DNA of 20,081 nucleotides. Origin: a virus. How positions within the stretch are numbered: the first letter of the stretch is position 1; each line of letters starts with the position of its first letter. Location: positions 1 to 20,081 of IMG/VR virus record IMGVR_UViG_3300032088_000123. One strand, written 5' to 3'. The notes below the pieces were generated by a model. That model ran no database searches. It was not told the origin of the DNA and saw only the letters and a program-made list of their open reading frames with translations. Position numbers and translations under genes: made by a program. Positions 1 through 18,697 of this stretch are shown here, in pieces.

Positions 1-1
1 T

Positions 2-3005: not shown

Positions 3006-3008
3006 GAA

Positions 3009-3980: not shown

Positions 3981-3988
3981 CTATCAAC

Positions 3989-3994
3989 AGGAGA
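3989..3994 (+). promoter_or_regulatory. Strong ribosome binding site of the coat gene
   Basis: AGGAGA lies 7 bases before the ATG at 4002, among the best Shine-Dalgarno matches in the window. It sits in one of the few real intergenic gaps (3981-4001), which fits the high expression expected of a coat gene. Confidence 0.7.
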
Positions 3995-4001
3995 TATTAA
4001 G

Positions 4002-4961
4002 ATGGCTGCACCAACAAACACAATCGTACCAGCAGGTGTTGCTGGCAACAGAGAAGACCTCTCAAACCTCATCGAGCGCGTTGCTCCTGAGAAAACACCA
4101 TTCTGCTCAAACATTAAAGGCGGCGGCGTTAAAGTTACTGCTACACGTCATGAGTGGCAAACAGAAACACTAGCAACTCCAGATGCTGCTTCAGCACAAG
4201 TTGATGGTGATGATACTACATCATTCGAAGCTAACACAAGAACACGTGTTGCTAACCGCGTACAAACTAAAAAGCGTGCGGTAGTTGTAGCTGGCATACA
4301 AGAAGCTGTTGACTCGGCTGGTGTAGCGTCAGAAATGGCTAGACAAAAGCTTATCAAAGGTATTGAGCTAAAGCGTGACTTTGAAGCACGTTTTATTGGT
4401 AACTTTGCTTCATCTGAAGAATCAGGTTCAACTGGTCGTAAAGCTGCTGGTGCATTAGCCTGGGCAACTTCAAACGTATCGCGTGGTACAAATGGTGCTA
4501 ATGGTGGATATAGCGGAACAGATTGTGCTGCTGCTACAAATGGTACACAGCGTACTTTTACCAAAACTATTATGGATTCCGTAATTCAATCTGGATTTAA
4601 CAATGGCGCTACATTCTCACAAATTTATATGAGTGCTGCTCATAAAGCAATATTTGCTGGATTTGCTGGACTTGCAGCTAACCGTTATGAAATCAACGGA
4701 ATGGATGAAGGCGTAGTTGTTGGCGGTGCAGACGTTTATCTGTCTAACCACGGCAAACTAACTATAATACCAGTACAGTATGGTTTAACACGCGATGCTC
4801 TATTTGTAGACCCATCCATGTGTACATTAGGTACATTACGTTCACCACGTTATGAAGAACTATCCAAAACTGGTGACAACGAAAAAGGTCAAATCCTTGG
4901 TGATATGACACTAATCGTTAAAAACGAAAAAGGTCTAGGCGTAGCCGCAGACTTAACCTAA
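4002..4961 (+). CDS. Major capsid protein (SU10/DUF5309-type, HK97 fold)
   Basis: This 319-residue protein begins MAAPTNTIVPAGVAGNREDL and continues with SNLIERVAPEKTPFCSNI. That opening (NREDLS..I...P..TPF) is characteristic of the SU10 major-head-protein family (DUF5309), which has the HK97 fold. The C-terminal part has the expected beta-rich P-domain/A-domain feel (ADVYLSNHGKLTIIPVQYGL, then FVDPSMCTLGTLRSPRYEEL). The size is normal for the family. No N-terminal delta domain or cleavage site is evident; the separate scaffold gene upstream fits that. The subunits form the icosahedral shell around the DNA. The gene has a strong ribosome binding site and is followed by a stable hairpin. Codon use here is richer in G and C than in the ejection-protein genes downstream, as in highly expressed phage genes. 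Confidence 0.88.
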   Translation: MAAPTNTIVPAGVAGNREDLSNLIERVAPEKTPFCSNIKGGGVKVTATRHEWQTETLATPDAASAQVDGDDTTSFEANTRTRVANRVQTKKRAVVVAGIQEAVDSAGVASEMARQKLIKGIELKRDFEARFIGNFASSEESGSTGRKAAGALAWATSNVSRGTNGANGGYSGTDCAAATNGTQRTFTKTIMDSVIQSGFNNGATFSQIYMSAAHKAIFAGFAGLAANRYEINGMDEGVVVGGADVYLSNHGKLTIIPVQYGLTRDALFVDPSMCTLGTLRSPRYEELSKTGDNEKGQILGDMTLIVKNEKGLGVAADLT

Positions 4962-4975
4962 TATTAGGTAACGAA

Positions 4976-5001
4976 TGGGGGTTGGCATTTGCCAGCCCCT
5001 A
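4976..5001 (+). promoter_or_regulatory. RNA hairpin just after the coat gene
   Basis: GGGGTTGGC (4978-4986) pairs with GCCAGCCCC (4991-4999), with one G-U pair, around the loop ATTT. Two more outer pairs (G4977-T5000, T4976-A5001) extend the stem to 11 bp. It lies 15 bases past the coat stop. The 3' side reads CAATTAGG, so there is no T-run. It is therefore not a classic intrinsic terminator. It could be a leaky attenuator, or an mRNA 3'-end stabiliser or processing site that sets coat message above downstream messages. Confidence 0.6.
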
Positions 5002-5017
5002 CAATTAGGAGATAAAT

Positions 5018-5236
5018 ATGCCAAAAGCAAAAGCACCAAAGATTAAAGCTAAAATACAAAAAGATGATGGTATTGAATGCATAGTTACTAAAAAAGGCGG
5101 TATAGCTTGCATTAGAACAGGTAAAAATAATGCTGATGGCAGTGAAATATGTTACAAAAAAGGCGACATATTTAAAACAAATGCAGCGCAAGCTAAATTA
5201 CTAGAAGAAAACGATTTAGTTGTAGCAAGGGATTAA
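5018..5236 (+). CDS. Small Lys-rich hypothetical head protein
   Basis: This gene encodes 72 residues, with a good Shine-Dalgarno (AGGAGA at 5007-5012, 5 bases before the ATG). The N-terminus is Lys-rich (MPKAKAPKIKAKIQKDDG). Three cysteines follow in a beta-looking core (ECIVTKKGGIACIRTG, EICYKKGDIF), ending in a short helix (AAQAKLLEENDLVVARD). No enzyme motif is seen. Its place directly after the coat hairpin and before the adaptor suggests a head decoration, cementing or head-completion protein, but this is inferred from position alone. The three cysteines are not arranged as an obvious zinc site. Confidence 0.65.
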   Translation: MPKAKAPKIKAKIQKDDGIECIVTKKGGIACIRTGKNNADGSEICYKKGDIFKTNAAQAKLLEENDLVVARD

Positions 5237-5237
5237 C

Positions 5238-5567
5238 ATGAGTAGTTTTAAACCATTTTCATATGATGCAGCAACAGGCATGAAACACAGCCTGGCAGTA
5301 GATAGTGCAACAGATGAAATGTATGTAAAAACAGAACAAGATGTCACTAAAATATTAGATGATAATAAAAGACAACAATATGATGCTAAAGGTACATTGG
5401 GCAAGGCTGACTTGGTAAAGGTTGGCACAATACCATTAGGGCTTATACAGCATTGGAAAGCAACAGAAGGCATTGATGTATTTAATCAAGACCATTGGCC
5501 TCGTGTTGTAGAAAAATTAAATAGTAATGAATTTCAAGCATTGCGAGTGGCGCAGTTTAAGGTGTAG
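5238..5567 (+). CDS. Hypothetical protein, head-tail region
   Basis: This gene encodes 109 residues and starts one base after the previous stop, with AAGGGA about 5-7 bases upstream of the ATG. The protein is soluble and mixed alpha/beta in appearance (FKPFSYDAATGMKHSLAVDS, then KTEQDVTKILDDNKRQQYDA). It contains IPLGLIQHWKATEGIDVFNQ and ends in a short helical tail (EFQALRVAQFKV). I recognise no named family. In podovirus genomes this slot between coat and adaptor usually holds small head proteins. The head-related role is inferred only from that. Confidence 0.65.
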   Translation: MSSFKPFSYDAATGMKHSLAVDSATDEMYVKTEQDVTKILDDNKRQQYDAKGTLGKADLVKVGTIPLGLIQHWKATEGIDVFNQDHWPRVVEKLNSNEFQALRVAQFKV

Positions 5568-5569
5568 TT

Positions 5570-6181
5570 ATGGCATTTGCAAATCTAGGCGAGTTAAAAA
5601 CAGTTATAAATGACACGTTAAATCGTGATGATTTGACTGCACAAATACCTAATTTTATTAAAATGAACGAAGAAAGCGTTAACCGCAAAGTTAATGTATC
5701 TGAAATGGAAGAATATACTGAGTTTACTATAAACGTAGGCCAAACAACACTTCCTACAAACTTTTTAGAAATGCGTAATATACAGATGAAAAACTCTGAA
5801 TATCCATTGCAGTATGTACCGCATAACTCATTAGATGGCATAGGCGCTGACTCAGGTATACCTAGGTTTTATTCTATACAAGGCACTAAATTATTATTTT
5901 ATCCATTTCCACCAGATGCTACTATTGGCATTATGAGATATTTGGCTGAAGTAACGCCTTTAGTAAATGATGTAGACACAAATTGGTTGCTAAGTAAATC
6001 ACCACAAATATATTTATACGGTACACTATTACACGCTGCACCATTTTTGAATGATGACAGTAGATTGCCTGTGTGGAGTGCATTATTTGAAGATGCTGTA
6101 AAGGCATTAAATGACCAAGACAAACGCAGAATGTCAGGAACAAAACCACAGATGATTAACACAACAGCAGGATACTATTAA
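5570..6181 (+). CDS. Head-tail adaptor protein
   Basis: This 203-residue protein begins MAFANLGELKTVINDTLNRD and continues with IPNFIKMNEESVNRKVNVSE. It has the helix-turn-helix start of podovirus adaptor proteins, which bind under the portal. The middle is beta-rich (EFTINVGQTTLPTNFLEMRN, then YSIQGTKLLFYPFPP), and helices close the protein (LLSKSPQIYLYGTLLHAAPF, then WSALFEDAVKALNDQDKRRM). This order matches the SU10-type/T7 gp11-like adaptor class. Such adaptors form a dodecamer that seals the portal and carries the nozzle. The start has AAGG 7 bases upstream. Position before the nozzle gene supports the call. Unlike P22 gp4, no peptidoglycan hydrolase motif is visible. Confidence 0.75.
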   Translation: MAFANLGELKTVINDTLNRDDLTAQIPNFIKMNEESVNRKVNVSEMEEYTEFTINVGQTTLPTNFLEMRNIQMKNSEYPLQYVPHNSLDGIGADSGIPRFYSIQGTKLLFYPFPPDATIGIMRYLAEVTPLVNDVDTNWLLSKSPQIYLYGTLLHAAPFLNDDSRLPVWSALFEDAVKALNDQDKRRMSGTKPQMINTTAGYY

Positions 6182-6182
6182 T

Positions 6183-6719
6183 ATGCCTACAACAACTAAC
6201 TATGGCTGGACATATAATACACCAGGTACTGCACAAGATACATGGGGCGGTGATTTAAACGCTACGCAAATAGCAATTGATGCACAAGTAAAAATTAATG
6301 AAAACTTAGCTAATGCTAAAGCACCAATAGCCAATCCTACATTTACAGGCACAGTAACAGGGCCAACATTTGCTGGTAATTTAACAGGCAATGTTACAGG
6401 TAACGTAACAGGTAACGTAACGGGTGCTGTGACAGGCAATGCAACATCAGCAGATAAATGGTCTACTGCTAGAACAGTAACGTTAACAGGCGCTGTAACA
6501 GGAAGTGTAGCATTTGATGGTACAGGTAATTTTTCGTTAGCTACAACACTTGCTACTGTAGCTGACAGTACATTTACAATAGCAAAAACAAGCGGTTTGC
6601 AAGCTGCATTAGACAGCAAAGTAACACACGCTAGTGGCAATGGCAGAACAATAACTGTAGGCACATCAGCACCTAGCAGTCCATTAACAGATGACATTTG
6701 GTTTGATACAACAGTATAA
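6183..6719 (+). CDS. Short fiber-like structural protein with GNVT repeats
   Basis: This 178-residue protein is low in charge and rich in Thr, Ala, Gly and Val. Residues about 50-64 (IANPTFTGTVTGPTF) and the following GN[LVA]T repeats (65-88) are typical of phage fiber shafts and base segments. A second beta-rich stretch follows (ARTVTLTGAVTGSVAFDGTG). The last segment, TSAPSSPLTDDIWFDTTV, resembles the 'APSSP..GD.WFDT' end pieces common in phage fiber proteins. No S74 chaperone or host-binding domain is present, so it may be an accessory fiber, a fiber-attachment protein or a former part of a larger protein. It ends in a TAATG overlap with the Ig-like gene, which lies in the -1 frame. Confidence 0.65.
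   Translation: MPTTTNYGWTYNTPGTAQDTWGGDLNATQIAIDAQVKINENLANAKAPIANPTFTGTVTGPTFAGNLTGNVTGNVTGNVTGAVTGNATSADKWSTARTVTLTGAVTGSVAFDGTGNFSLATTLATVADSTFTIAKTSGLQAALDSKVTHASGNGRTITVGTSAPSSPLTDDIWFDTTV
6375..6446 (+). repeat. Six 12-bp units encoding GNVT-type repeats
   Basis: Six in-frame 12-bp units encode GNLT, GNVT, GNVT, GNVT, GAVT and GNAT (residues 65-88 of the 178-aa protein). The DNA units are only similar (for example ggtaacgtaaca against ggcaatgttaca), so this is an older array than the minisatellite at 11377. Repeats of this kind form beta-helical or triple-stranded fiber shafts. Confidence 0.8.
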
Positions 6720-7183
6720 TGGCAATAAAAACGTATAACGGCACTGCATTTGCAGAGGTAACAGCTAAGTATTACAACGGTAGTGCGTGGGTAGAACCTA
6801 ACAGTGGTGTTAAAAGATGGAATGGTAGTGCATGGGAAGTTGTTTCTACTGCATTTGAAGCAACATTAACGCAAACAACATTGTCTGGCTCATCATCATA
6901 TAACTCATCTATAGGTAGTTACACAGGCGTTACAAGTAGTCCTGGCACGGGCTATACAGCGGTAACTGTTACAGGCGGTAGAGCGCCATTTACATATCAA
7001 TGGTTCTATATATCTGGCACTGTAAGTAGCATAAATTTATTTCCACAACTCCCTACGCAGTACACTACAAGATTTGGTTTTAATTACGCATTGCAAGGTG
7101 GAAATGCTGTTTACAGATGTCAAGTAACAGATGATGATGGCAACGTAATAAATTCAGATACAGTTACAGTGAGTTTTAGTTAA
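6719..7183 (+). CDS. Structural protein with Ig-like domain
   Basis: This 154-residue protein begins with three imperfect copies of a short surface motif (TYNGTAF, KYYNGSAWVE, RWNGSAWEVV; residues about 4-42). A C-terminal Ig-like beta-sandwich follows from about residue 85, seen in GRAPFTYQWFYISG and in YRCQVTDDDGNVINSDTVTV with the conserved YRC strand and Trp. Ig-like domains are common decorations on phage capsids and tails and are thought to bind surface sugars weakly. Both gene ends are TAATG overlaps, with the fiber-like gene before and the nozzle gene after, so the three are probably translated together. No clear ribosome binding site precedes it. The exact virion location is unknown. 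Confidence 0.65.
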   Translation: MAIKTYNGTAFAEVTAKYYNGSAWVEPNSGVKRWNGSAWEVVSTAFEATLTQTTLSGSSSYNSSIGSYTGVTSSPGTGYTAVTVTGGRAPFTYQWFYISGTVSSINLFPQLPTQYTTRFGFNYALQGGNAVYRCQVTDDDGNVINSDTVTVSFS

Positions 7184-8661
7184 TGTTAGTACCATTAAAC
7201 ATACCACCAGGTGTATACACCAACGGCACAGAGTATCAGTCAAAAGGCCGTAACTTTGATGCTAACCTTGTGCGCTGGCAATTTGGAGCACTAGGGCCAA
7301 TAGGCGGTTGGAGGCAAAGAACAACTACAACTGTAAGCGGCAAGGCAAGACGTGTTATATCTTGGCGTGATAACAGTAATCAAATATTTGCCGCTATAGG
7401 TACCAACAGTAACTTGTACGCTATGACTGTAGGAGGTGCTGTAACAGATATTACGCCTTCTGGATTGACTACAGGCAGGGCAGATGCAGATACAGGTGCT
7501 GGTTATGGCACAGGTTTATATGGTCGCGGCCCGTATGGGGTTAGTAACCCTGCTGTAACTAATACTATAAATCCAGCAAGTGTATGGTCATTAGACACTT
7601 TTGGTCAAATATTACTAGGTGTATTGCCTGATGATGGTAAATTATACGAATGGAATGTAGATGTAAATGTTGATGCTACACAAGTAACAAATGCACCTAT
7701 AAGTAATAAAGCAGTATTAGTAACACCAGAACGTATTGTAATGTGTCTTGGAGCAGCAGGAGTGCCAAGAGATGTTGCTTGGTCAGACCAAGAAGATAGA
7801 AATCAATGGACAGCGGCAGCCAACAACCAAGCTGGTAACTTTAGCTTGCAAACAGCTGGTACAATATTAAATGCTGTTAATGTAAAAGGTGGTAGCCTGA
7901 TATTTACAGACAAAGACGTATGGCGCGTTGTATATTTAGGGCCGCCATTAGTGTACGGATTTCCACAAGATAATGCTGGTGGTGGTTTAGTATCTGCTGG
8001 TGCTGTAACTACGGCTGATGGCGCAGCATATTGGATGTCACATGAAAACTTTTATGTTTATACAGGTTACAGCCAACCTATAAAATGCGACGTACATGAT
8101 GCAGTATTTAAAGATATTAACAGAGCGCAAATTAGTAAAGTTACTGCTTGGCATAACGCATCATTTGGTGAGGTTTGGTGGTTTTACCCTAGTGCGGATA
8201 GCACTGAAAATGACAAATATGTGGTTTATGACTACAGAGAAGGGCATTGGAATAAAGGCAGTTTATCGCGATTATGTGCGACAGACAAAGCGCCGTTACC
8301 ATATCCAATAGCTGTAGATGCTACTGGTAAGATATATGACCATGAGTTTGGGTATGACCACAATGGCGATGTAAGTTTTATTGAGCATGGCCCTGTAGAA
8401 TTAGGTTCGGGTGAAAACAGCTCTAATCTTACGTTTTTATACCCTGATGAAAGCGCACAAGGCGATGTGAGCATGACATTTAAAACCAAAATGTATCCTA
8501 ACGGCACAGAGCGTAGTTTTGGGCCATATACAGCAACTAGGCAACCTGTACCAATAAGAGTACATGGCAGACAGATGCTTGTTAAGGCAATAGGCGCAGA
8601 GTCAACTAATTGGAGGCTTGGTGTACCGCGTATTGAAGTTAAACCAGGGAGCAAACGATGA
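7183..8661 (+). CDS. Tail nozzle / DNA-stabilisation protein (P22 gp10, T7 gp12 role)
   Basis: This 492-residue protein begins MLVPLNIPPGVYTNGTEYQS, the opening typical of podovirus nozzle proteins ('PPGVY.NGT.Y...GRW.D.N.VRW'). The body is a run of beta-strands consistent with a beta-propeller, including ISWRDNSNQIFAAIGTNSNL, VAWSDQEDRNQWTA, SLIFTDKDVWRVVYLG, AAYWMSHENFYVYTG and WWFYPSADS. Gly/Tyr-rich loops (GAGYGTGLYGRGPYG, about residues 104-118) are also usual for the family. P22 gp10 (472 aa) has a similar length. The hexameric nozzle extends the adaptor and plugs the packaged DNA. It starts in a TAATG overlap and ends in an ATGA overlap, in a chain of coupled tail genes. Family identity is judged by eye. 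Confidence 0.8.
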   Translation: MLVPLNIPPGVYTNGTEYQSKGRNFDANLVRWQFGALGPIGGWRQRTTTTVSGKARRVISWRDNSNQIFAAIGTNSNLYAMTVGGAVTDITPSGLTTGRADADTGAGYGTGLYGRGPYGVSNPAVTNTINPASVWSLDTFGQILLGVLPDDGKLYEWNVDVNVDATQVTNAPISNKAVLVTPERIVMCLGAAGVPRDVAWSDQEDRNQWTAAANNQAGNFSLQTAGTILNAVNVKGGSLIFTDKDVWRVVYLGPPLVYGFPQDNAGGGLVSAGAVTTADGAAYWMSHENFYVYTGYSQPIKCDVHDAVFKDINRAQISKVTAWHNASFGEVWWFYPSADSTENDKYVVYDYREGHWNKGSLSRLCATDKAPLPYPIAVDATGKIYDHEFGYDHNGDVSFIEHGPVELGSGENSSNLTFLYPDESAQGDVSMTFKTKMYPNGTERSFGPYTATRQPVPIRVHGRQMLVKAIGAESTNWRLGVPRIEVKPGSKR

Positions 8662-8867
8662 GGCTACCTGATGCAATGCCAGCCTACGATGCAATAAATG
8701 AAACAGAAACACGTCGCAATATTACATATGAAATGACGCAAACACGTAAGATTAATGAAGATATAAATATAAACGCAAACAATAGATTAATACTTACAAG
8801 TCCTAACGGCACACGCTATAGTGCAAGTATTAATAACTCTGGAGTATTAACATGGACGGCTCTGTAA
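8658..8867 (+). CDS. Small conserved-type phage protein
   Basis: This gene encodes 69 residues, with AGGGAG at 8646-8651 six bases before the ATG and a 4-base ATGA overlap with the nozzle stop. The N-terminus is polar and Asn-rich (INETETRRNITYEMTQTRKI). The C-terminus, LILTSPNGTRYSASINNSG, resembles the LTSPNGTRY-type ending of small structural proteins seen in many tailed phages, with alternating beta-strand residues. No enzyme motif or membrane segment is visible. It overlaps the next gene by 16 bases. A minor virion role is inferred from the neighbours. Confidence 0.65.
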   Translation: MRLPDAMPAYDAINETETRRNITYEMTQTRKINEDININANNRLILTSPNGTRYSASINNSGVLTWTAL

Positions 8868-9223
8868 ATATAGAGAACCATAAAGAACAAATTGTAAACG
8901 CTTTAGCACGTTCAGGACATAAACACACGTATGATGATGTAAAAAAAGCTGTTGCAAATAGTGAGGCACAATATTGGCCCGCTAATAACAGCGCTGCAAT
9001 AACACAAATAGCTAACAAATCTGATGGAACTGTTGGATTAAATGTTTGGCTATATGGTGGCGATTTAAAAGATTTTTATCTTTTAGTAGATGCCGCAAAA
9101 AAACACGTAAAAGACTTAGGCGGTGACTTTATTATGACATTTGACCACCGCAAGGGTTGGAACAGATTATTAAAAAAACTTGGTTTTGTTGAGCATGGCA
9201 AAACCTTAATATGGAGGCTGTAA
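8852..9223 (+). CDS. GNAT-like protein before the ejection genes
   Basis: This gene encodes 123 residues, with GGAG at 8841-8844 seven bases before the ATG. A helical N-terminus (VNALARSGHKHTYDDVKKAV) is followed by alternating strands and helices. The end, GGDFIMTFDHRKGWNRLLKKLGFVEHGK, has the 'helix then GF' shape of the last part of GNAT acetyltransferases. Small GNAT-like proteins occur next to internal virion protein genes in T7-like and other podoviruses. The clear acetyl-CoA pyrophosphate-binding loop (Q/RxxGxG/A) is not visible, so it may be a fold relic or a structural protein rather than an active enzyme. It overlaps the next gene at TAATG, and its Trp-Arg codons (TGG AGG) double as that gene's Shine-Dalgarno. 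Confidence 0.55.
   Translation: MDGSVNIENHKEQIVNALARSGHKHTYDDVKKAVANSEAQYWPANNSAAITQIANKSDGTVGLNVWLYGGDLKDFYLLVDAAKKHVKDLGGDFIMTFDHRKGWNRLLKKLGFVEHGKTLIWRL
9213..9217 (+). promoter_or_regulatory. Ribosome binding site that fixes the ejection-gene start at 9223
   Basis: GGAGG lies five bases before the ATG at 9223. An in-frame ATG at 9211 exists but overlaps this site, so the downstream ATG, in a TAATG junction with the preceding stop, is the better start. Confidence 0.7.
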
Positions 9224-10239
9224 TGGGCGGCAAGAAAAAAGTTGAAGATAAAAAAGATGTTACGTTTGACCCGTACTCAAGACAAATGCTGGATAGCGCT
9301 AATCGTAATGTTAATGAGCTTACAGGGCAAGAATTTGCACCCTATACAGGCGAACGTGTTGTAGATATAACGCAAGGTGAACGTGATGCTGTAGCTAATT
9401 ATTTAGGGAACAACGTAAGTAATCGCGGTTTTGTTGAGCAAGGCTTGTCAATGGCACAGCAAGGCGCACAATACACGCCAGACCAAATACAATCACAAAA
9501 CTTTACTGATGCAGATATTAGCGGATACATGAACCCATACATGGAAAACGTAATTAGTAATGCATTAAGTGATATAGACCGCAGAGAAATGGCTAGTGCT
9601 GAAAATATTGATGCACAAGCCTCTAGAGCATCTGCATTTGGGGGTTCTAGACAAGCAATACAGCAAGCTGAAAATACACGTAATTTTGGTGAAATAGCTG
9701 CAAAAACTGCGGCACAACTAAGGCAACAAGGTTATGAAGATGCTGCAAGTAGAGTGCAAGCAGATGCACAAAGACAGCTTATGGCAGACCAATATAATCA
9801 GTCGGCTGGATTACGAGGTGCAGATATGAGAGCGCGTAGTGCAGACCAAGTGGCAAATATGGCTGGTCAATTATCTGACGCTGATATGAGAGCAATGCAA
9901 ATTGAATCTGGATTAGGTGCTGCGGATAGAGAAATTGAACAGCAAAGATTGCAAGCAGCATATGATGATTATTTAGCAGGAATAAACGATAGATATAGAC
10001 GCGCTGATTATCAGATACAATTAGGTCAATTAACACCAAACTTACAAGACAGTACAAGCACACGTACAACAAGTGGTGGTAGCGGCATCGGTGGTATGAT
10101 TGGGCAAGGTCTGTTAGGATTAGCTAGTATGCCATCAGGCGGTGTAGGTGCTGGTATATTAGGTGGATTATTTAGTAAGCCATCAGCACCATCAGTACCT
10201 AGAGTTGACACTGGATTTGGTAATTACAACAGACTGTAA
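9223..10239 (+). CDS. Probable DNA-ejection / internal virion protein
   Basis: This gene encodes 338 residues if translation starts at 9223 (GGAGG five bases upstream) rather than at the in-frame ATG at 9211. The protein begins MGGKKKVEDKKDVTFDPYSR. It has a long Gln/Ala-rich helical core with repeated patterns (ADMRARSADQVANMAGQLSD, then DMRAMQIESGLGAADREIEQ). It ends in a Gly-rich hydrophobic stretch (about residues 290-318, around GQGLLGLASMPSGG and GAGILGGLF) that could insert in a membrane. Such a helical body with a glycine-zipper-like tail is usual in podovirus ejection proteins, which leave the virion first and help build a channel across the envelope. The neighbours on the right are also ejection-type. 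Role inferred from composition and order. Confidence 0.65.
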   Translation: MGGKKKVEDKKDVTFDPYSRQMLDSANRNVNELTGQEFAPYTGERVVDITQGERDAVANYLGNNVSNRGFVEQGLSMAQQGAQYTPDQIQSQNFTDADISGYMNPYMENVISNALSDIDRREMASAENIDAQASRASAFGGSRQAIQQAENTRNFGEIAAKTAAQLRQQGYEDAASRVQADAQRQLMADQYNQSAGLRGADMRARSADQVANMAGQLSDADMRAMQIESGLGAADREIEQQRLQAAYDDYLAGINDRYRRADYQIQLGQLTPNLQDSTSTRTTSGGSGIGGMIGQGLLGLASMPSGGVGAGILGGLFSKPSAPSVPRVDTGFGNYNRL

Positions 10240-10254
10240 ACAAAAGAGAATGAC

Positions 10255-12861
10255 ATGAGAAACCCACAACAAAATGCACTGTTAGCAAATATATTAATAA
10301 ATCCAAATACAGGACTTCCGTATCGTGGGCAAAGAAATAATAATTTGTTAAATATACGATATAATAAAGGTAATAATTGGCAAGGGCAAACAGGGCAAGA
10401 TGATTCGGGATACGCACAATTTGATAATAGATTTAGTGGCATACGTGCAGCTGATAAAGTATTAAACAATTATAGTAAATTGCATAATATAGACACAATT
10501 GAGGGTATGGTAAATAGATTTGCGCCTAAAGGTGATAATAATCCTGTAGATGCATATATAGACAATATATACGACAAAACTGGTATAGAGCGTGGAAGTA
10601 AAATTAATTTACAAGACCCAAATGTAAGAAATCAGTTGTTACCTGTAATGGGAAATTTTGAAACACCAGGTGCAAATATTACTTTAGATGACTTGCAACG
10701 CGCAAGAGGATTTAGCAAAGCACAAACAATACCAAGTAACAATCAGGGTGCTATAGCAAACCCATTGTTTGACCCAAATAATCAAGGCAGAATAAATGTA
10801 GACTTAACAAATAACTCTAACGAGCCAGTGTTTAGCGCCAAGGACATGATGAGAAATGATTACTACAAAGGTAGAGCAAAGTATGCACTTGGAAATAAAC
10901 AAAGAGTACAAGAACAAAAACAACGTGAAGAAAATTTAGCAGTAGCTAGACGTGTAAACAAAAAAATAGACATTGAGCAAAATCCATATGCAATTGGAGG
11001 TAAAAGAATTACACGCGAACCACAAGACCAAAGAATACTTGACATACTAACAAATAGAAAAAACAGACAAACAAACCAAAGGACAGAACCTACAGTTGTA
11101 AATACAAGACCAGGGTTTTTAGATTTAAAAAGAAAGTCTACATTAACACCCGAGGACGTAAATCCAGGCGAAGATTTACTAGGACAAAAAGTAAGTCGCA
11201 CAGCCTTACAAGTAATGTCTGCACCGCCTGATGAAGTAATAACAAGTAAAGCTGGTAATGTTACATATCAGCATTTAAAAAATACACCAGAAGATGTAAA
11301 AAAAGAATTGGCGAGACAAGCAATTGAAAAAGCAAAAGCTAAAGAGGCATTATATAAAGATAAATTAGGAGATAGTACTGGCTCTGGTACTGGCTCTGGT
11401 ACTGGCTCTGGTACTGGCTCTGGTACTGGCTCTGGTACTGGCTCTGGTACTGGCTCTGGTACTGGCTCTGAAAGTGGTAGTTTTTTGAATGCTGGTATGT
11501 ATCGTAATCCAGCAGGGCAAATAAATACAAATGTAGAAAGGCCAGAAACTGAAAGAGATAGATTAACAAGATTAATACAAGAAGAATACAAGCCAACAAG
11601 TATGAACAAAAATAAATATTTACTAGGCATATTAGGTGGCATTATGGCAGATAGATTTGGCGACCCTACTGTAAACAATAATAATTTTGGTCAATTTATG
11701 GATTACGCACAAAGCCAAAATGCAAATAATTATGAACAATATAATGACCGCAGAAATTCATTGCTAGAACAATTAAAATTACTAGATGACCAAAGCATTG
11801 ATAAACAAGATAGTGCAGGTTATTACAACCCTTACCAAACTGGTTTAATGTATGGATATTACGATGGTAATAATTTTGTACGCGTACGTGATAGTGAAGA
11901 CAAAAAAGCAGACTACGCTGCAAATGCAGCTGCAGGTGGTATGAAAACACCAAGATTTGCACCATTTACAGCTAGTACAGTTGCACCTGACGCAGCTAAC
12001 AATTTACCTACAGAAGCAGATGTAGTAAGCCTTGACCCAGAAATACAAAAAACAAACGCACAATTACTTAATAATATAGAAAGTAATTATGAAATTGATG
12101 ATAGTTTGTCAGGCGAAGATAAAGAAAGAAAAAAAATTGAAAATATTAACAATTTAATTGGCGCACCACCAAAAAGTGCATTGATAGAACAACTTGACGG
12201 CACTAAAAAATATTGGTTTGATACTGGCCAGCCTGGGCAGCTTGAAACAATGCAATTACCAGGTGGCAAAACAATTAATATAAATTCACGCGCATCAAAG
12301 AAATATTACGATACATACGGAAGTGACGCACCACAAATAATTGCATCACTGCTGAAGCAAACTGATGGTTTAGCAAGAGAGTTAAATACATTAGATAATA
12401 TATTAAATATTGACCCTAAAATATTAAATAAAATGTCAGGCCCATTTAGAGGTGAAAGTGATAGCAAAATAGGTAAAACATTAGTAGGTACGTCAAAAGC
12501 GTTGGATTATTTTATACCAAGTGCAGTAGGCGGCCAACGTGGTGTAGCAGAAGATATAACTGCAGCAATATCATACTTTGACCAATTTGACGGACAAGTA
12601 TACGCAAAAGCTTATGAAATACTTAAAGGCGCTGGTCAAATCACTGAGTTTGAAGCACAAACAGTTGCAAAAGGACTTACAAACATTAGCAGAGGTTTAA
12701 GCGGTAAGAAACTTGTAGAGGCTATAAAGGAATATAAATTGATAAATCAAATTATATTAGATAATGGTAAAGCAAGATTTGGTATGAGAGATGAAAATGG
12801 TAATCCTTATGTAGAAAAAGACTTAGAAAAAGCATTGGCAGAACTTAAAGGTAGAAATTAA
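10255..12861 (+). CDS. Large internal virion protein with N-terminal muralytic-like domain
   Basis: This is an 868-residue protein. Residues about 22-115 (RGQRNNNLLNIRYNKGNNWQ, then QFDNRFSGIRAADKVLNNYS and NRFAPKGDNNPVDAYIDNIY) match the RNNNPGNIRY...W.G Q.G....F..F....GIRA pattern of phage structural peptidoglycan-degrading proteins, which open a local hole in the wall during DNA entry. Polar, Asn/Lys-rich sequence follows, then a (TGSG)n linker at residues 375-406. The C-terminal part contains AKAYEILKGAGQITEFEAQT (about residues 783-802), a motif I associate with internal virion proteins of podoviruses. Combining a wall-degrading domain with an ejection body resembles T7 gp16 in logic, though not in sequence. 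Base composition is markedly AT-richer than in the preceding genes. The catalytic residue of the N-terminal domain cannot be fixed by eye. Confidence 0.7.
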   Translation: MRNPQQNALLANILINPNTGLPYRGQRNNNLLNIRYNKGNNWQGQTGQDDSGYAQFDNRFSGIRAADKVLNNYSKLHNIDTIEGMVNRFAPKGDNNPVDAYIDNIYDKTGIERGSKINLQDPNVRNQLLPVMGNFETPGANITLDDLQRARGFSKAQTIPSNNQGAIANPLFDPNNQGRINVDLTNNSNEPVFSAKDMMRNDYYKGRAKYALGNKQRVQEQKQREENLAVARRVNKKIDIEQNPYAIGGKRITREPQDQRILDILTNRKNRQTNQRTEPTVVNTRPGFLDLKRKSTLTPEDVNPGEDLLGQKVSRTALQVMSAPPDEVITSKAGNVTYQHLKNTPEDVKKELARQAIEKAKAKEALYKDKLGDSTGSGTGSGTGSGTGSGTGSGTGSGTGSGTGSESGSFLNAGMYRNPAGQINTNVERPETERDRLTRLIQEEYKPTSMNKNKYLLGILGGIMADRFGDPTVNNNNFGQFMDYAQSQNANNYEQYNDRRNSLLEQLKLLDDQSIDKQDSAGYYNPYQTGLMYGYYDGNNFVRVRDSEDKKADYAANAAAGGMKTPRFAPFTASTVAPDAANNLPTEADVVSLDPEIQKTNAQLLNNIESNYEIDDSLSGEDKERKKIENINNLIGAPPKSALIEQLDGTKKYWFDTGQPGQLETMQLPGGKTININSRASKKYYDTYGSDAPQIIASLLKQTDGLARELNTLDNILNIDPKILNKMSGPFRGESDSKIGKTLVGTSKALDYFIPSAVGGQRGVAEDITAAISYFDQFDGQVYAKAYEILKGAGQITEFEAQTVAKGLTNISRGLSGKKLVEAIKEYKLINQIILDNGKARFGMRDENGNPYVEKDLEKALAELKGRN
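11377..11470 (+). repeat. 12-bp minisatellite encoding (TGSG)n linker
   Basis: The unit actggctctggt occurs seven times perfectly (11377-11460), followed by ten bases of an eighth copy. It is in frame and encodes TGSG units (residues 375-402), then TGSES. Every copy uses identical codons, so the array is recent or kept uniform by slippage. Because the unit is a multiple of three, copy changes would lengthen or shorten the linker without breaking the frame. Confidence 0.95.
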
Positions 12862-12862
12862 A

Positions 12863-14407
12863 ATGACTGATTTTATAATAGATAAAAATGGCAATTTAAT
12901 TTCCGTAGATGAAATAGAGTCACAAAACTCTATAGATAGTAGCAATAGATTGGCTAAAGGTTTGACACAGCAAGCATTTAGAGGCGCAACTGCTAATTTA
13001 AGCGACCCAATATATGCTGGTATTAAATCACTAAGTCCAAATGTAACCTATCAAGATGCAAGGCAAGGTTTACGTGAATTAGATAAATACACTAAAGAAA
13101 CTGCACCTAAAGCTGCTATGGCTGCAAATATTGGTGGTTCAGCAATAGGATTTGGAAAGCTTAATGCATTAAAAGTATTACCATCACAATTAGCTAAAAG
13201 AGCAACATTGCGAGGACAACCAGAAAAAGCAGTAAAACGTGCATTAGAAAAAGCATCATTAAATGCAAAAGGAGTTGCAGGTGATTCTGTAGCATACAGT
13301 GTTGCAAGTGATATTGTTGACGATAAAGACGCTGAATTAGTTGCAAGAAACGCTGCGCTATCAGGATTGCTAGGCGCTGGTAGTGCTAAATTAATAAGCG
13401 GTGTGGGTAAAGGATTAGTTAGCAACGCAAATCGTAGAAAAATTAAAAAAGATAAAATTTCATCAGAAAATATATTAAAGCAAAGTGAAAAACATTATAA
13501 AGATGCAGCAAAACATAATACACCACTAGATGATAACATTGTTGATGATGCAATTAGAAATGCTAGTAGTAATAGAGATGTACAATATGCAACTGGTGAA
13601 ACTAAAGCATTTATAGATGCATTAAGAAACAAAGTTAATGTAGAACCACAATTAATAAATAATAAAAGTGTGCGTATACAAACAACAAATTCATTACAAA
13701 AATTAATAACTGATGCAAAAGCTAGATTGCCAGGACTAGTGAAAGACCAAAAAGCACAAGCAACAGCAATATTAGATATTATAGATAGTTTAAACGACAC
13801 ACTTATAAATAAAGTTGGTGGCAATGCTAAAAAGTCACACGCAGCTTATTTGTTGGGTAATCAAGAGTATTCACGTTATAGTCGTATAGCTAATTCAGAA
13901 AAAGTAATAGGAAATCCAAATGCAACTGATATTGCAGGAAACCCAATAAGGGGTAATATTGAATATATGCGCGGTGCAGATGCAATACAAGAAATAAGAA
14001 ATACCGCACGAAATGTAGCAAGTGGCTCAAGTGGTGTAGGTAAAAATTCTGTAGGCAATAAGAATGTATTAAATATTGCAGATGATTTGGTGTATCCATC
14101 AACAACGCAAAAATTAAAAGAAGTAGTTGCTGGTACTTCACTTACTGATGGCAATCTTAATGTTGCTGGTGGGTTAGGCGTATTAAGTGGTGTTGCAACA
14201 GGTGGTATAGCTGGCCCAATAGCTATACTTACAAGTGCTGATATTGTTAGTAAAAGTGTAAAAAAACAAGCAGTTAAACAATTGCAAGAAATTATTAATG
14301 CATTAAAATTGCAGGAAAATTATAGATTGTTAAGTCCTAGTGAAACAAATACAATGCGTACAATTAGTAGAGTATTAGGCGCGCAATCAAGTAATTTGTA
14401 TGATTAG
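12863..14407 (+). CDS. Probable DNA-ejection protein with hydrophobic Gly-rich segments
   Basis: This 514-residue protein starts one base after the stop of the 868-aa gene. It begins MTDFIIDKNGNLISVDEIES and is mainly helical and polar. Three Gly/Ala-rich, membrane-competent stretches stand out at about residues 84-98 (AAMAANIGGSAIGFG), 164-187 (LSGLLGAGSAKLISGVGKGL) and 434-462 (VAGGLGVLSGVATGGIAGPI onward). The last of these, 25 or more residues long, is the best transmembrane candidate. This pattern suits podovirus ejection proteins, which are stored in the head and then cross into the cell envelope. No enzymatic motif was recognised. It shares the low-GC composition of the preceding gene and overlaps the next gene by 8 bases. 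The function is inferred from order and composition. Confidence 0.6.
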   Translation: MTDFIIDKNGNLISVDEIESQNSIDSSNRLAKGLTQQAFRGATANLSDPIYAGIKSLSPNVTYQDARQGLRELDKYTKETAPKAAMAANIGGSAIGFGKLNALKVLPSQLAKRATLRGQPEKAVKRALEKASLNAKGVAGDSVAYSVASDIVDDKDAELVARNAALSGLLGAGSAKLISGVGKGLVSNANRRKIKKDKISSENILKQSEKHYKDAAKHNTPLDDNIVDDAIRNASSNRDVQYATGETKAFIDALRNKVNVEPQLINNKSVRIQTTNSLQKLITDAKARLPGLVKDQKAQATAILDIIDSLNDTLINKVGGNAKKSHAAYLLGNQEYSRYSRIANSEKVIGNPNATDIAGNPIRGNIEYMRGADAIQEIRNTARNVASGSSGVGKNSVGNKNVLNIADDLVYPSTTQKLKEVVAGTSLTDGNLNVAGGLGVLSGVATGGIAGPIAILTSADIVSKSVKKQAVKQLQEIINALKLQENYRLLSPSETNTMRTISRVLGAQSSNLYD

Positions 14408-14681
14408 CCGCAAACCCATACTAAAAGCTAAAATGAAGTGCAACAAGCCTAGACGTACGCCTGGGCATAAAACAAAGTCGCACGTTGTAAAAGCGTGTTA
14501 TGATGGCAAAGAAAAGATAATACGCTTTGGACAGCAAGGTGCTAGTACAGCAGGAAAGCCTAAGTCTGGTGAAAGCCAACGTATGAAGAAAAAGAGAGCT
14601 AGTTTTAAAGCGAGACATCGCAAGAACATAGCAAAAGGTAAATCAAGCGCAGCTTATTGGGCTGACCGCGTAAAATGGTAA
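14400..14681 (+). CDS. Small, strongly basic phage protein
   Basis: This 93-residue protein is very rich in Lys and Arg. It has KCNKPRRTPGHKTKSHVVKA near the start, then DGKEKIIRFGQQGA, SFKARHRKNIAK and the ending AYWADRVKW. This 'KPRRT....SHVVKA..GK.K.IRFG..G.......SFKARH.....S..YWA....W' layout occurs in a small protein family of unknown function found in many marine phages. I do not give it a name. Its charge suggests nucleic acid or internal-DNA contact, and its position next to ejection genes and before the fiber suggests a minor virion protein. It starts inside the last codons of the 514-aa gene (8-base overlap). Confidence 0.7.
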   Translation: MISRKPILKAKMKCNKPRRTPGHKTKSHVVKACYDGKEKIIRFGQQGASTAGKPKSGESQRMKKKRASFKARHRKNIAKGKSSAAYWADRVKW

Positions 14682-14682
14682 T

Positions 14683-14686
14683 GGAG
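14683..14686 (+). promoter_or_regulatory. Ribosome binding site of the tail fiber gene
   Basis: GGAG within GGAGAG lies 6 bases before the ATG at 14693 if the full GGAG is extended to AG (14683-14688 gives a 4-base gap). The site falls in the 11-base gap after the basic-protein gene. Confidence 0.6.
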
Positions 14687-14692
14687 AGTTAA

Positions 14693-17600
14693 ATGCCAAT
14701 AGCTGAAGATAGTGCTGGTGGTTCACCCGTACCCGTACCTACAGACTTAACTACAAACCTTACTGGAGAAGCAACAGGTAGTGGTACGTTAGATTACACA
14801 ACAGGCGATATAGATATTGTAGTTACTGTTGTAGATAATGGTCATAATCACATATTAGACAACATTACAGATGTGCAAGTCAATAACGCCATAAGCGGTC
14901 AGGTATTAAAGTACAATGGAAATGTATGGGTAAATGGCACAGATGAAAATGCTGGTATTACTGCACTTGTGCAGGATTTGTCACCTCAGCTTGGCGGAAA
15001 TCTTGATTTAAATAATCGGAATATCACAGGCACAGGCAATTTAGATTATACAGGAGACATTACTTTAACAGGTACTGTTGATGGTCGTAATGTATCAGTA
15101 GATGGCACAAAGCTTGACGGCATTGAACCTGGAGCTACAGCAGACCAAACAGCCGCACAAATTAAAACCGCGTATGAGAGTAATGCAAACACAAACAATT
15201 TTGCTGACGCTGATGTAAGCAAACTTAGCGGTATAGAGCCAGGTGCAACAGCAGACCAGACAGCGGCACAGATTAAAACAGCATACGAAAGCAACAGCAA
15301 CACAAACGCATTTACAGATGCTGACCACACAAAATTAGACGGAATAGAAACAGCGGCTGATGTAACAGATACAACAAATGTTGTTGCTTCACTAACCGCT
15401 GGTACAAATGTAACTATAGCGGCTGATGGTACTATATCTGCAACAGGCGGCACTAGCGGTATAGCACACGTTGTAGACGACACTTCACCCGAGCTTGGCG
15501 GCAACTTAAGTCTTAATAGCCACGATATTACAGGCACAGGTAACTTAAACTTTACAGGAAATCTAACCCTATCAGGCACAGTAGATGGCCGCGACGTAGC
15601 TGCTGATGGCACTAAACTCGATGGCATAGAAGCATCTGCTGATGTAACAGATACTGCTAACGTAACAGCCGCAGGAGCCTTAATGGATTCTGAGGTTACT
15701 AACTTAGCACAAGTCAAAGCATTTGATTCATCTGATTATGCTACTGCCGCACAAGGTACTACTGCTGATGCTGCGCTACCTAAAGCTGGCGGCACTATGA
15801 CAGGCGATATACTGTTTAACGACAGTGTTAAAGCTAAGTTTGGTACTAGCTCAGACTTACAAATCTATCACGATGGTACACACAATTGGATAAGAGATGT
15901 TGGAACAGGTGCGCTTTTCTTAGACACGAACTCAGCAATACATTTATATGCTAATGGCAGTGAAAATATGCTATATGCACAACCTAATGCGGGTGTTCAA
16001 GTATTCTATGATAACGTCAAGAAACTTGAAACAACATCTACTGGTATAGATGTAACAGGTACAGCTCAAGCCGATTTTATGAAAATTAGCACTCCCGATG
16101 CTGGTGGTTCTCCTTCAACAACCGCAATACTTGATATACATGGATATGAAGGACGTGGCGCTGGTATAAAAATTAGAGACAATGCTAATAGCGCTAGTGG
16201 TGCAAGTAATAGAGAATGGTTTGTTGGTAGTGGCTATAATCAAACTGGGTTTAATATTGGTTATTCACCTACAGGTTCGCAATCATCTTATGCCGCACAA
16301 AATAAATTAACCATTGATACGTCTGGTAACGTAGGCATAGGAACTACAAGTCCTAACCATGAGCTACATATTGAAAGCGCATCACCGACTATTCGTTTAG
16401 TTGATACTGATGGAAATAATACATTAGATATTGGACAAAGCGGTTCGGCTTGTTATGTAGATTTTGATAACACTGTAAGATTTAGGAATTTAGCTAATGT
16501 TGAAAGACTTAGGATTGATACAGGTGGTATAGATGTAACAGGTGTAACAAAGACTTCAGGTAGTGGTTACAACCCTGCTAATACGGGTTGGGCAACTAAT
16601 GCGTCACTTATTACAAGTGGTTCATATGGTGGTGGTTTAACCATGATAGATGGCAGTAATGCTTTCTCTGTTCGTGTAGATACAGGTGGCCTAGCAATGC
16701 GAATTGCACAAGGAGCTACAAGTGGTGCGCTTAATTCAGACATAGCAGTCTTTACTAATAATTCTTTAGATGTAAAACGTGATATTAATACTACAGGTAA
16801 CATTTATCTTAATAGCAGTAATCAAGACAGTCCACAAGTAGTATGGCAATCACAAGGTTATGGCGACCAATACATAGATAACTATCAAGGTAGACTAAGA
16901 GTTGTAAACTCTGGTGCTGAACAACTGAGCATTTCTCAAGGTGGTAATATGAATATCTATGGGAATTTAGATGTATCTGGTGTTATCAGATGCGTTGTAA
17001 CAAGTGCCCCTGCATGGGATACAAATACAAGGTTCTGGGGTGAAAGCGGATTTGGCGCACGTTATGATTCATACCAACACCGCTGGGATGTAGGAGTAAC
17101 ACGTACTGAGGCAATGCGTATTGACCAATCGGGTAACGTTAGTATAGCGTCAGGTGACTTACTTGTGCAAAACACATCACCTGTAATTACTTTGAAAGAT
17201 ACTGATGGAAATGCAACTACATCCACACCATATGTGCTATACCAATCATCAACAGGTTCACAACTTGGTTATATTGGTTACGGTAGTAGTAGTAATGGTA
17301 AGTTAAATATTGTTAACTCTAATAACGATGATATAACATTCTTTACTGATAACACTCAACGTATGGCAGTAACAGGTAGTGGTGTAAATGTAACAGGTGC
17401 AACTACAACTACAGGTACTAGCGGAACTTTACAATGGTCTGCGGGTACAGCAGGACAGAAGTTAGCAATATATGGCTATGATAACAGTACATTCTACCAC
17501 AGACTAGATTCAGGTAATGCTACTAATTATCAATGGGGTGCATACGATAACATTCCAATCTACACTATTACTAATAATACTATTAGGACAACACTGTTAG

Positions 17601-18697
17601 GTAATGGTAATTTTGGCGTGGGTACTACGTCACCTGCAGACAAAGTCCACGTCGAAGGCAATATATATCTTGGTAGCTCGTCTAGGTCTGTATACACAGG
17701 TGGTAGTGGTGATTTAAGATTACAAACGAATACAGGTGAAGTTAAAGTATTAACTGCGAATGGCGCAACGACTAATCTAATTACAAGCGGTACAGGTATA
17801 AATATTCCTGCTAATCTAGACGTAGGTAATGCATTAAACGTTGGTGGTGCTAGTGCAGCAGGTAGTGGCTTTATAGAATCTACTGTTGTAGGGTCTTCAC
17901 GTGCTTTACAAACTGTAGGCAATGTTAACACTACTCAGACCCATATAGGATTTGAAAATCCTTATGGTGAGATAGGTAGAATAGATGTTAGTGCATTTTC
18001 AGTAAGTTATGTAACTAGCTCAGATTATAGGCTCAAGACTGATATACAACCTATGCAAGGAAGTATTGACAGAGTAAAAGCATTGAAGCCTGTTAACTTT
18101 GAGTGGAAAGAAGACGGTACTAGGGTAGATGGTTTCTTAGCACATGAAGCACAAGAGGTAGTACCAGAAGCTATTAGTGGAGAAAAGGATGCAATGCGTG
18201 ACCAAGAGTATGTTGAGAGCGAGGCAACAGGTGACATATACACTCCTGCCGTTGACGCAACGTATGAAACAATACAAGTTGAGCTAACACCTGCTGTTGA
18301 GGCCGTTTATGAAACAGTAACAGTAGAGATAAGTCCTGCCGTAGAAGCTACATATGACGAAGATGGCAATGAACTTACCCCTGCTATTGAAGCAGTAACA
18401 GAAGAACAAGAGCAACTTGTTACACCTGCCGTTGACGCTACCTATGAGGCGCAAGAGCGAGAGCTAACTCCTGCGATTGATGAAGTAATATATAGCTCAG
18501 ATGTTGTAGAGCCAGATGAACTTGAGGAAGGTCAACTATGGCGAGAAACAACAGAAAAGGTTATGGCAACAAGGCAAGTGCCAGACTACCAAGGCATCGA
18601 CCAAAGTAAGATTGTGCCATTGCTAACATCTGCACTACAGGACGCGATTGCTAAGATTGAAGCATTAGAAACACGACTAGAGGCGTTGGAAAGTTAA
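14693..18697 (+). CDS. Tail fiber with C-terminal S74 intramolecular chaperone
   Basis: This 1334-residue protein is rich in Thr, Gly, Asn and Ser. Residues about 1-90 are likely virion-attachment sequence. Two 49-residue blocks of SP[QE]LGGNL type (97-145 and 265-313) flank two 37-residue GIEPGATADQ units (143-216). Next come FGTSSDLQIYHDGTHNWIRD (383 onward) and several beta-rich repeats with IDTSGNVGIGTTSP (near 541-554) and GVGTTSP (975-981). Such repeats build trimeric beta-helical shafts. The C-terminus carries the S74 chaperone signature SDYRLKTDIQ (S1110), with K1115 and the downstream FLAHEAQEVVPEAI. This class directs trimer folding and then cleaves itself before the Ser. The chaperone is interrupted by a 90-residue repeat array (1184-1273). 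The fiber should bind the host surface, but no receptor-binding tip can be identified by eye. Confidence 0.88.
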   Translation: MPIAEDSAGGSPVPVPTDLTTNLTGEATGSGTLDYTTGDIDIVVTVVDNGHNHILDNITDVQVNNAISGQVLKYNGNVWVNGTDENAGITALVQDLSPQLGGNLDLNNRNITGTGNLDYTGDITLTGTVDGRNVSVDGTKLDGIEPGATADQTAAQIKTAYESNANTNNFADADVSKLSGIEPGATADQTAAQIKTAYESNSNTNAFTDADHTKLDGIETAADVTDTTNVVASLTAGTNVTIAADGTISATGGTSGIAHVVDDTSPELGGNLSLNSHDITGTGNLNFTGNLTLSGTVDGRDVAADGTKLDGIEASADVTDTANVTAAGALMDSEVTNLAQVKAFDSSDYATAAQGTTADAALPKAGGTMTGDILFNDSVKAKFGTSSDLQIYHDGTHNWIRDVGTGALFLDTNSAIHLYANGSENMLYAQPNAGVQVFYDNVKKLETTSTGIDVTGTAQADFMKISTPDAGGSPSTTAILDIHGYEGRGAGIKIRDNANSASGASNREWFVGSGYNQTGFNIGYSPTGSQSSYAAQNKLTIDTSGNVGIGTTSPNHELHIESASPTIRLVDTDGNNTLDIGQSGSACYVDFDNTVRFRNLANVERLRIDTGGIDVTGVTKTSGSGYNPANTGWATNASLITSGSYGGGLTMIDGSNAFSVRVDTGGLAMRIAQGATSGALNSDIAVFTNNSLDVKRDINTTGNIYLNSSNQDSPQVVWQSQGYGDQYIDNYQGRLRVVNSGAEQLSISQGGNMNIYGNLDVSGVIRCVVTSAPAWDTNTRFWGESGFGARYDSYQHRWDVGVTRTEAMRIDQSGNVSIASGDLLVQNTSPVITLKDTDGNATTSTPYVLYQSSTGSQLGYIGYGSSSNGKLNIVNSNNDDITFFTDNTQRMAVTGSGVNVTGATTTTGTSGTLQWSAGTAGQKLAIYGYDNSTFYHRLDSGNATNYQWGAYDNIPIYTITNNTIRTTLLGNGNFGVGTTSPADKVHVEGNIYLGSSSRSVYTGGSGDLRLQTNTGEVKVLTANGATTNLITSGTGINIPANLDVGNALNVGGASAAGSGFIESTVVGSSRALQTVGNVNTTQTHIGFENPYGEIGRIDVSAFSVSYVTSSDYRLKTDIQPMQGSIDRVKALKPVNFEWKEDGTRVDGFLAHEAQEVVPEAISGEKDAMRDQEYVESEATGDIYTPAVDATYETIQVELTPAVEAVYETVTVEISPAVEATYDEDGNELTPAIEAVTEEQEQLVTPAVDATYEAQERELTPAIDEVIYSSDVVEPDELEEGQLWRETTEKVMATRQVPDYQGIDQSKIVPLLTSALQDAIAKIEALETRLEALES
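14981..15127 (+). repeat. 49-codon fiber block, copy A
   Basis: Residues 97-145 of the fiber (SPQLGGNLDLNNRNITGTGN through DGTKLDGIE). The partner at 15485-15631 has exactly the same length, with diverged codons. Confidence 0.8.
15119..15340 (+). repeat. Two tandem 111-bp fiber units
   Basis: Units start at 15119 and 15230, each 111 bases (37 residues). By eye, 31 of 37 residues match, and the first 22 are identical. Of those 22 codons, 15 differ, all synonymously. Confidence 0.85.
15485..15631 (+). repeat. 49-codon fiber block, copy B
   Basis: Residues 265-313 of the fiber (SPELGGNLSLNSHDITGTGN through DGTKLDGIE) are colinear with copy A at 14981-15127, without gaps. Confidence 0.8.
18017..18697 (+). 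other. S74 self-cleaving chaperone domain of the fiber
   Basis: The signature SSDYRLKTDI starts at residue 1109. By analogy with endosialidase chaperones, cleavage is predicted between S1109 and S1110, with the Ser-Asp dyad and K1115 as the conserved positions, releasing a 225-residue piece. VKALKPVNFEW and FLAHEAQEVVPEAI follow. The closing helix YQGIDQSKIVPLLTSALQDA with the coiled coil IAKIEALETRLEALES is typical of the family end. The usual domain has only a short loop between these two parts. Here a repeat array fills that loop. Confidence 0.85.
18242..18511 (+). repeat. Six 45-bp units (15-residue TPAV repeats) inside the S74 domain
   Basis: Units start at 18242, 18287, 18332, 18377, 18422 and 18467, exactly 45 bases apart. 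Each begins with T/S-P-A-V/I (TPAVDATYE, TPAVEAVYE, SPAVEATYD, TPAIEAVTE, TPAVDATYE, TPAIDEVIY). The units are acidic, and their codons are well diverged. Confidence 0.9.

What the first reader, a model, noticed from the sequence alone, without database searches (positions are those of the whole stretch)
11377..11470. Perfect 12-bp minisatellite in a DNA-ejection protein
Seven exact copies and most of an eighth of actggctctggt encode a flexible (TGSG)n linker in the middle of the 868-aa virion protein, after the N-terminal muralytic-like part. Uniform codons imply recent slippage. In-frame length variation could tune the distance between a wall-degrading domain and the body that spans the envelope, perhaps matching host envelope thickness.
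Basis: partly seen in the sequence, partly recalled or inferred. Interest (0 to 1): 0.5.

Follow-up and report, generated by a model that had tools for sequence, protein, structure and literature searches.

The report
Variable repeat linker in phage protein
An uncultured short-tailed phage carries a perfect 12-base repeat that lengthens a probably floppy linker in a protein thought to be injected into its host, and a near-identical relative differs by exactly one repeat, so the linker changes length quickly although its purpose is unproven.

Summary
The array is real: 8.0 perfect copies of a 12-bp unit at 11375-11470, encoding (TGSG)7-TGS at residues 375-405 of an 868-aa protein. That protein is probably an ejected internal virion protein: residues 19-132 match a muralytic (phrog_873, Enc34-type) domain in an SU10-like virion module.

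One other IMG/VR contig is identical to the window from 1 to 17757 except for one extra 12-bp unit. A second pair, with a 15-bp unit (AAPVD), is identical over 3.9 kb except for one unit. Relatives carry other perfect arrays (GAGD, AVDKE, DDTKT, AAPVD) in this gene: in 36 contig pieces, 9 perfect arrays of at least 2.5 copies lie in it and 0 in 288 kb outside.

So recent in-frame gain and loss of units is well supported. Tuning to envelope thickness is not: linker length ranges 243-320 aa in 12 proteins, some relatives lack arrays, and a 4-5 aa step is small. Best reading: a tolerant tether in which coding minisatellites repeatedly arise. New variant of a known kind, moderate interest.

The parts
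11375..11470 (+). perfect 12-bp tandem array (8.0 copies of GTACTGGCTCTG), residues 375-405 = (TGSG)7-TGS
10255..12861 (+). 868-aa probable ejected internal virion protein that holds the array
   Evidence: for identity
10309..10650 (+). N-terminal muralytic-like domain, residues 19-132 (phrog_873 'endolysin'; Enc34-type)
10705..11619 (+). variable linker region, residues 151-455, array near its C-terminal end
   Evidence: landmark distances; alignments
11620..12858 (+). conserved core from LLGILGGIMADRFG (residue 456) to the C-terminus
9211..10239 (+). 342-aa neighbour, matches phrog_4287 'DNA ejection protein'
   Evidence: E=1e-10
12863..14407 (+). 514-aa neighbour, probable further internal virion protein (by position only)
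   Evidence: no confident family

Best explanation
The array is a young coding minisatellite in a long, probably disordered linker of an internal virion protein that is probably ejected into the host at the start of infection. The N-terminal domain degrades peptidoglycan, the C-terminal core presumably belongs to the ejection apparatus, and the linker is a flexible tether between them. Slipped-strand replication or unequal recombination adds or removes whole units. Because the units are multiples of three bases and encode small, mostly hydrophilic residues, such changes are tolerated here, so different units repeatedly arise, expand and decay. SHOWN: the array; its place between a muralytic-like module and a conserved core; one-unit differences between otherwise identical contig stretches for two repeat types; several different units in the same gene in relatives. 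INFERRED: enzyme activity, ejection, disorder, the slippage or recombination step, and tolerance rather than selection.
For: Window vs L007: identical over 3211-16224 apart from one 12-bp unit, and 0 mismatches in 1-5300 and 6875-17757. L024 vs L056: identical over 3,903 bp apart from one 15-bp unit. Different perfect units in relatives: GAGD x7.1 (L008), AVDKE (L002, contig ends in it), DDTKT x3.3 (L018), AAPVD x4.5 or 5.5 (L024, L025, L031, L056). Perfect arrays of at least 2.5 copies and 36 bp: 9 in this gene (68,862 bp), 0 outside (287,748 bp), 5 distinct units against 0, in 36 pieces. All five units are 12 or 15 bp. A degraded GAGD/GAGN array of 2.8 copies at 90% match in L027-L029 looks like decay or early growth.
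Against: With looser settings the concentration fades: at least 2.0 copies and 100% match, 9 in and 4 out; at least 2.5 copies and 80% match, 10 in and 10 out. Thresholds were chosen after a first look, and several pieces are near-duplicates. The L018 array lies well upstream of the core, not at the same spot. AAPVD is not hydrophilic on average (+0.54), and for it another frame is less hydrophobic. No raw reads were available, so copy numbers rest on assemblies. Both structure models were poor, so disorder is untested.
Confidence: 0.7

Rival explanations
1. Adaptive length tuning or bet-hedging: copy-number alleles set the reach between the wall-degrading domain and the body, and host envelope properties select among them.
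For: Alleles differing by one unit exist on otherwise identical backgrounds. Contig L025 ends exactly at the base where the 4.5- and 5.5-copy alleles part, which hints that alleles coexist in one sample. Precedent: copy number of 15-18 bp in-frame repeats in periplasm-spanning TolA alters phenotype (PMC3477136, abstract and passages).
Against: Linker length spans 243-320 aa in 12 proteins, far more than a 4-5 aa step; L021-L023 have no array; no host, envelope or fitness data.
Confidence: 0.12
2. Assembly artefact: the true copy number is the same in both members of each pair and one assembly lost or gained a unit.
For: Short-read assemblies handle tandem repeats poorly; contigs L002 and L025 end inside arrays.
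Against: Arrays of 67-108 bp are shorter than a typical 150-bp read (read length recalled, not checked). The same kind of one-unit difference occurs for two unrelated units. The window and its partner are different genotypes, since their fibre tips differ from 17758 on.
Confidence: 0.12
3. The array is a recombination site for exchanging N-terminal muralytic modules.
For: Modules do swap between close relatives: Enc34-type in L021, SLT-type in L023, with 98.8% DNA identity just upstream.
Against: The switch points lie just after the module, around residues 160-200, not at the array, and L021-L023 have no array.
Confidence: 0.05

Closest known systems
E. coli TolA intragenic tandem repeats (PMC3477136; abstract and passages)
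   Same: In-frame 15-18 bp repeats in the linking domain of an envelope-spanning protein; copy number varies between close strains (8-16 in 234 isolates).
   Different: Bacterial host protein with imperfect, helical Lys/Ala-rich repeats; function of copy number was tested there and not here.
Phage tape measure protein repeats (PMC8616913, passages)
   Same: Repeats in a phage virion protein whose number sets a length (tail length).
   Different: 11-residue periodicity with aromatic markers in long-tailed phages; the units here have 4 or 5 residues without aromatics, in a phage with podovirus-type genes.
T7 gp16, epsilon15 gp15 and SU10 gp20 ejection or transglycosylase proteins (PMC8954989 and PMC9509320, passages; annotation of epsilon15)
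   Same: Large internal virion proteins with a peptidoglycan-degrading domain; in T7 gp16 an extended 'molecular tape' follows that domain.
   Different: No tandem array was found in the epsilon15 gene; T7 gp16 and SU10 gp20 were not scanned. The hydrolase of T7 gp16 is described as lytic transglycosylase; the window's is Enc34-type.
Xanthomonas phage tail-fibre domain duplications (PMC2248197, passages)
   Same: Copy-number change of repeated segments in a phage virion gene.
   Different: Whole domains in a tail fibre, discussed in relation to host range; not a short linker repeat.
Gly-rich linkers of filamentous phage g3p (recalled, no call)
   Same: Repetitive Gly/Ser linkers between domains of a phage entry protein.
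   Different: Different virus group and protein; not compared here.

Membership tests
Coding minisatellite / in-frame VNTR | head-to-tail near-perfect copies | tested here: met
   TRF 8.0 copies, 100%
Coding minisatellite / in-frame VNTR | unit length a multiple of three, in an open frame | tested here: met
   12 bp, ORF 10255-12861
Coding minisatellite / in-frame VNTR | copy number differs between close relatives | tested here: met
   8 vs 9 copies on an identical background, from assemblies
Coding minisatellite / in-frame VNTR | copy number changes phenotype | not testable with these tools
   no isolate
Phage ejection (internal virion) protein with hydrolase domain | peptidoglycan hydrolase domain by sequence | tested here: met
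   phrog_873 E=2.1e-27; PDB 9vvp Gp29 E=8.2e-15 and Enc34 endolysin E=5.5e-6
Phage ejection (internal virion) protein with hydrolase domain | gene lies in the virion module between tail genes and fibre, beside another ejection protein | tested here: met
   order; phrog_4287 for the gene before it
Phage ejection (internal virion) protein with hydrolase domain | C-terminal part resembles a protein known to be released at infection | tested here: inconclusive
   phrog_2534 in 5 of 10 homologues, not in the window protein at E up to 0.1
Phage ejection (internal virion) protein with hydrolase domain | packaged in the head and ejected | not testable with these tools
   needs particles
Tape measure protein | 11-residue periodicity with aromatic marker residues (as in PMC8616913) | tested here: not met
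   unit of 4 residues, no aromatics

The most novel reading that the evidence does not exclude
The linker is a contingency locus for genome entry: within one phage population, alleles with different numbers of repeat units coexist and change quickly, and hosts with different envelopes select among them, so that the reach of the injected wall-degrading domain is adjusted without point mutations. Contig L025, which stops exactly where two length alleles part, hints that alleles coexist in one sample.
Probability: 0.12. Interest if true: 0.7.

Novelty: new variant of a known kind. Interest (0 to 1): 0.42.

Why it matters
Short-tailed phages must pass the host cell wall before their DNA can enter. 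A linker that changes length in unit steps between otherwise identical phages would let one ask, with natural variants, how much reach an injected wall-degrading domain needs. It also flags a practical point: contigs of uncultured phages can break inside such arrays, so their length variation is probably under-recorded.

Tried and rejected
Structure prediction of the whole protein (mean pLDDT 37.9) and of the C-terminal core (47.4) was too poor; no fold search was run. A scan of bacterial and archaeal genomes with the core alignment found no relative, so no host is named. The degenerate TGSG pattern hit 56 stretches of viral contigs; judged by eye from the printed context, only L084, the contig already known, is the same protein, so the motif is no family marker. 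AAPVD and GAGD patterns brought no new relatives. Seven named phage loci with the same muralytic domain (L138-L144) had no perfect array in that gene; two had weak 2.1-copy repeats at 93% and 80% match, and two of the seven genes (L141, L144) are short single-domain proteins without a linker. An eighth record, L145, ends near the capsid gene and was not used. The array as a site of module exchange was considered and disfavoured. An on/off frameshift switch was set aside because the five units are all multiples of three. Matching epsilon15 gp13 and gp14 to the window's neighbour genes gave nothing, so full synteny with epsilon15 is not claimed.

Rows left out before counting: L015, L017, L019, L026 and L038 end before or at the start of the gene; L045, L049 and L051 gave no homologue; loci repeating a contig already counted. 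One search counted 30 pieces, one search added L032-L037, of which L032 and L033 show no similarity to the window core and L034-L037 were taken by position only. For L010, L012-L014 similarity to the window core was also not found directly; they are linked through L009, which itself matches the window core only at E=0.04. The window's own clade is small: besides the window only L001/L007, L002 and L003/L008.

Full report
WHAT IS THERE. The window is the whole of a 20,081-base virus record. At 11375-11470 it holds eight perfect copies of a 12-bp unit, read in frame as (TGSG)7-TGS, residues 375-405 of the 868-aa product of ORF 10255-12861. The longest lag-12 match in the gene is 84 bases, against a maximum of 15 in 2000 codon shuffles. 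Codons are identical from copy to copy and are not the gene's usual choice for Thr and Ser.

THE PROTEIN. The phage has an SU10-type portal and major capsid protein and an S74 fibre. No close cultured relative was found: the portal's listed best match is 34% identical, and all 294 matching records are below 60%. Residues 19-132 match phrog_873 'endolysin' (E=2.1e-27), the first residues of Gp29 of PDB 9vvp (E=8.2e-15) and the Enc34 endolysin (E=5.5e-6). With epsilon15 gp15 the domain is 34% identical over 158 positions, and Glu136 is aligned with a Glu there and in Gp29. PMC8943055 (passages) assigns catalysis in Enc34 to Glu131; the Enc34 alignment reported stops before that residue, so Glu136 as catalytic residue is inference. 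The gene before it matches phrog_4287 'DNA ejection protein' (E=1e-10). The C-terminal part of 5 of 10 homologues scanned matches phrog_2534 'released from the phage upon host infection'; the window protein itself does not at E up to 0.1. An ejected internal virion protein is the likely identity; it is not shown.

RELATIVES AND MODULES. Queries with this protein, both neighbours, the fibre start and a core alignment brought in the homologous gene, or the gene at its place, from 29 other contigs counted. Similarity to the window core is direct for 14 of the other 24 proteins compared at E below 1e-4, weak (E 0.02-0.04) for 2, not meaningful for one truncated protein (L025, E 8.5) and absent for 7 (L002 because it ends earlier). 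The N-terminal module differs between relatives: Enc34-type in the window, L007, L008, L002, L021, L022 (by hmmscan for window and L021; by near-identical sequence for the rest); SLT (PF01464) in L020, L023, L024, L028 and, by likeness to these, in L025, L027, L029, L031. L009, L013, L016, L018 and L050 gave no muralytic hit. Mosaic exchange of hydrolase domains among ejection proteins is already described (PMC8954989, passages). Between module and the core motif LLGxIMADRxG lies a linker of 243 to 320 residues in 12 proteins (landmarks set by hand); the window's array sits near its C-terminal end.

COPY NUMBER VARIES. L007 (contig IMGVR_UViG_3300021185_002194) equals window 3211-16224 exactly once one 12-bp unit is left out: 9 copies against 8. 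There are also 0 mismatches in 1-5300 and in 6875-17757. From 17758 the fibre tip has diverged, so the two are separate genotypes, not the same contig twice. A second pair, L024 and L056, is identical over 3,903 bp once one 15-bp unit is left out (AAPVD, 5.5 against 4.5 copies). L025, identical to L024 over all its 7,542 bp, stops after exactly 4.5 copies, the base after which L024 continues the array and L056 leaves it. That suggests, but does not show, that both alleles were present in that sample and split the assembly.

UNITS TURN OVER. The 94-95%-identical relative L008 has GAGD x7.1 where the window has TGSG. In a related clade the corresponding place holds no array (L021-L023; L020 and L048 likewise), a degraded GAGD/GAGN array of 2.8 copies at 90% match (L027-L029, near-identical contigs), or AAPVD (L024, L025, L031, L056). 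L002 ends inside a 15-bp AVDKE array; L018 has DDTKT x3.3 further upstream. In 36 contig pieces, perfect arrays of at least 2.5 copies and 36 bp number 9 in this gene (68,862 bp) and 0 outside (287,748 bp), five distinct units against none. Looser settings weaken this: at least 2.0 copies and 100% match, 9 in and 4 out; at least 2.5 copies and 80% match, 10 in and 10 out. The thresholds were not blind to a first look, several pieces are near-duplicates, and some were taken by position only. In four of five units the frame in use is the most hydrophilic open one; AAPVD is the exception.

HOW IT MOST LIKELY WORKS. A flexible tether tolerates gain or loss of whole in-frame units, so slippage or unequal recombination leaves visible arrays there, while purifying selection would remove them elsewhere (inference). 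In TolA, 15-18 bp in-frame repeats contract at 6.9x10^-5, largely RecA-dependent, and copy number alters phenotype (PMC3477136, abstract and passages). That precedent keeps the tuning idea alive, but nothing here shows it: linker length varies far more than one unit, and relatives without arrays exist.

LITERATURE. Six searches of the held library aimed at such arrays listed no paper that, by title or start of abstract, describes them in phage ejection proteins; the library lacks most subscription journals, and listings were capped at 20. Two more searches concerned SU10-like phages and Enc34. Eight papers were seen as passages only.

VERDICT. Observation confirmed; recent in-frame gain and loss of units well supported from assemblies; envelope tuning unproven. 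New variant of a known kind, moderate interest.

Noticed in passing
17758-18398: The fibre tip around the S74 chaperone domain is strongly diverged from contig IMGVR_UViG_3300021185_002194, although everything from 1 to 17757 is identical except the array: a mosaic exchange of the receptor-binding end.
   Followed up: partly
15116-15353 and 18242-18357: Imperfect tandem repeats in the fibre gene: period 111 bp (2.1 copies, 73% match) and 45 bp (2.6 copies, 70% match).
   Followed up: no
L021 2352-4634 and L023 2071-4461: Close relatives carry unrelated N-terminal modules on the same linker and core: phrog_873/Enc34-type in L021, SLT in L023, with 98.8% DNA identity just upstream.
   Followed up: partly
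18868-19398: ORF that reads like an M15-type peptidase endolysin (judged by eye, not tested).
   Followed up: no
6375-6446: Imperfect 12/24-bp repeat encoding GNVTGNVTG in a small virion-module ORF, also present in L007, L008 and L002.
   Followed up: no
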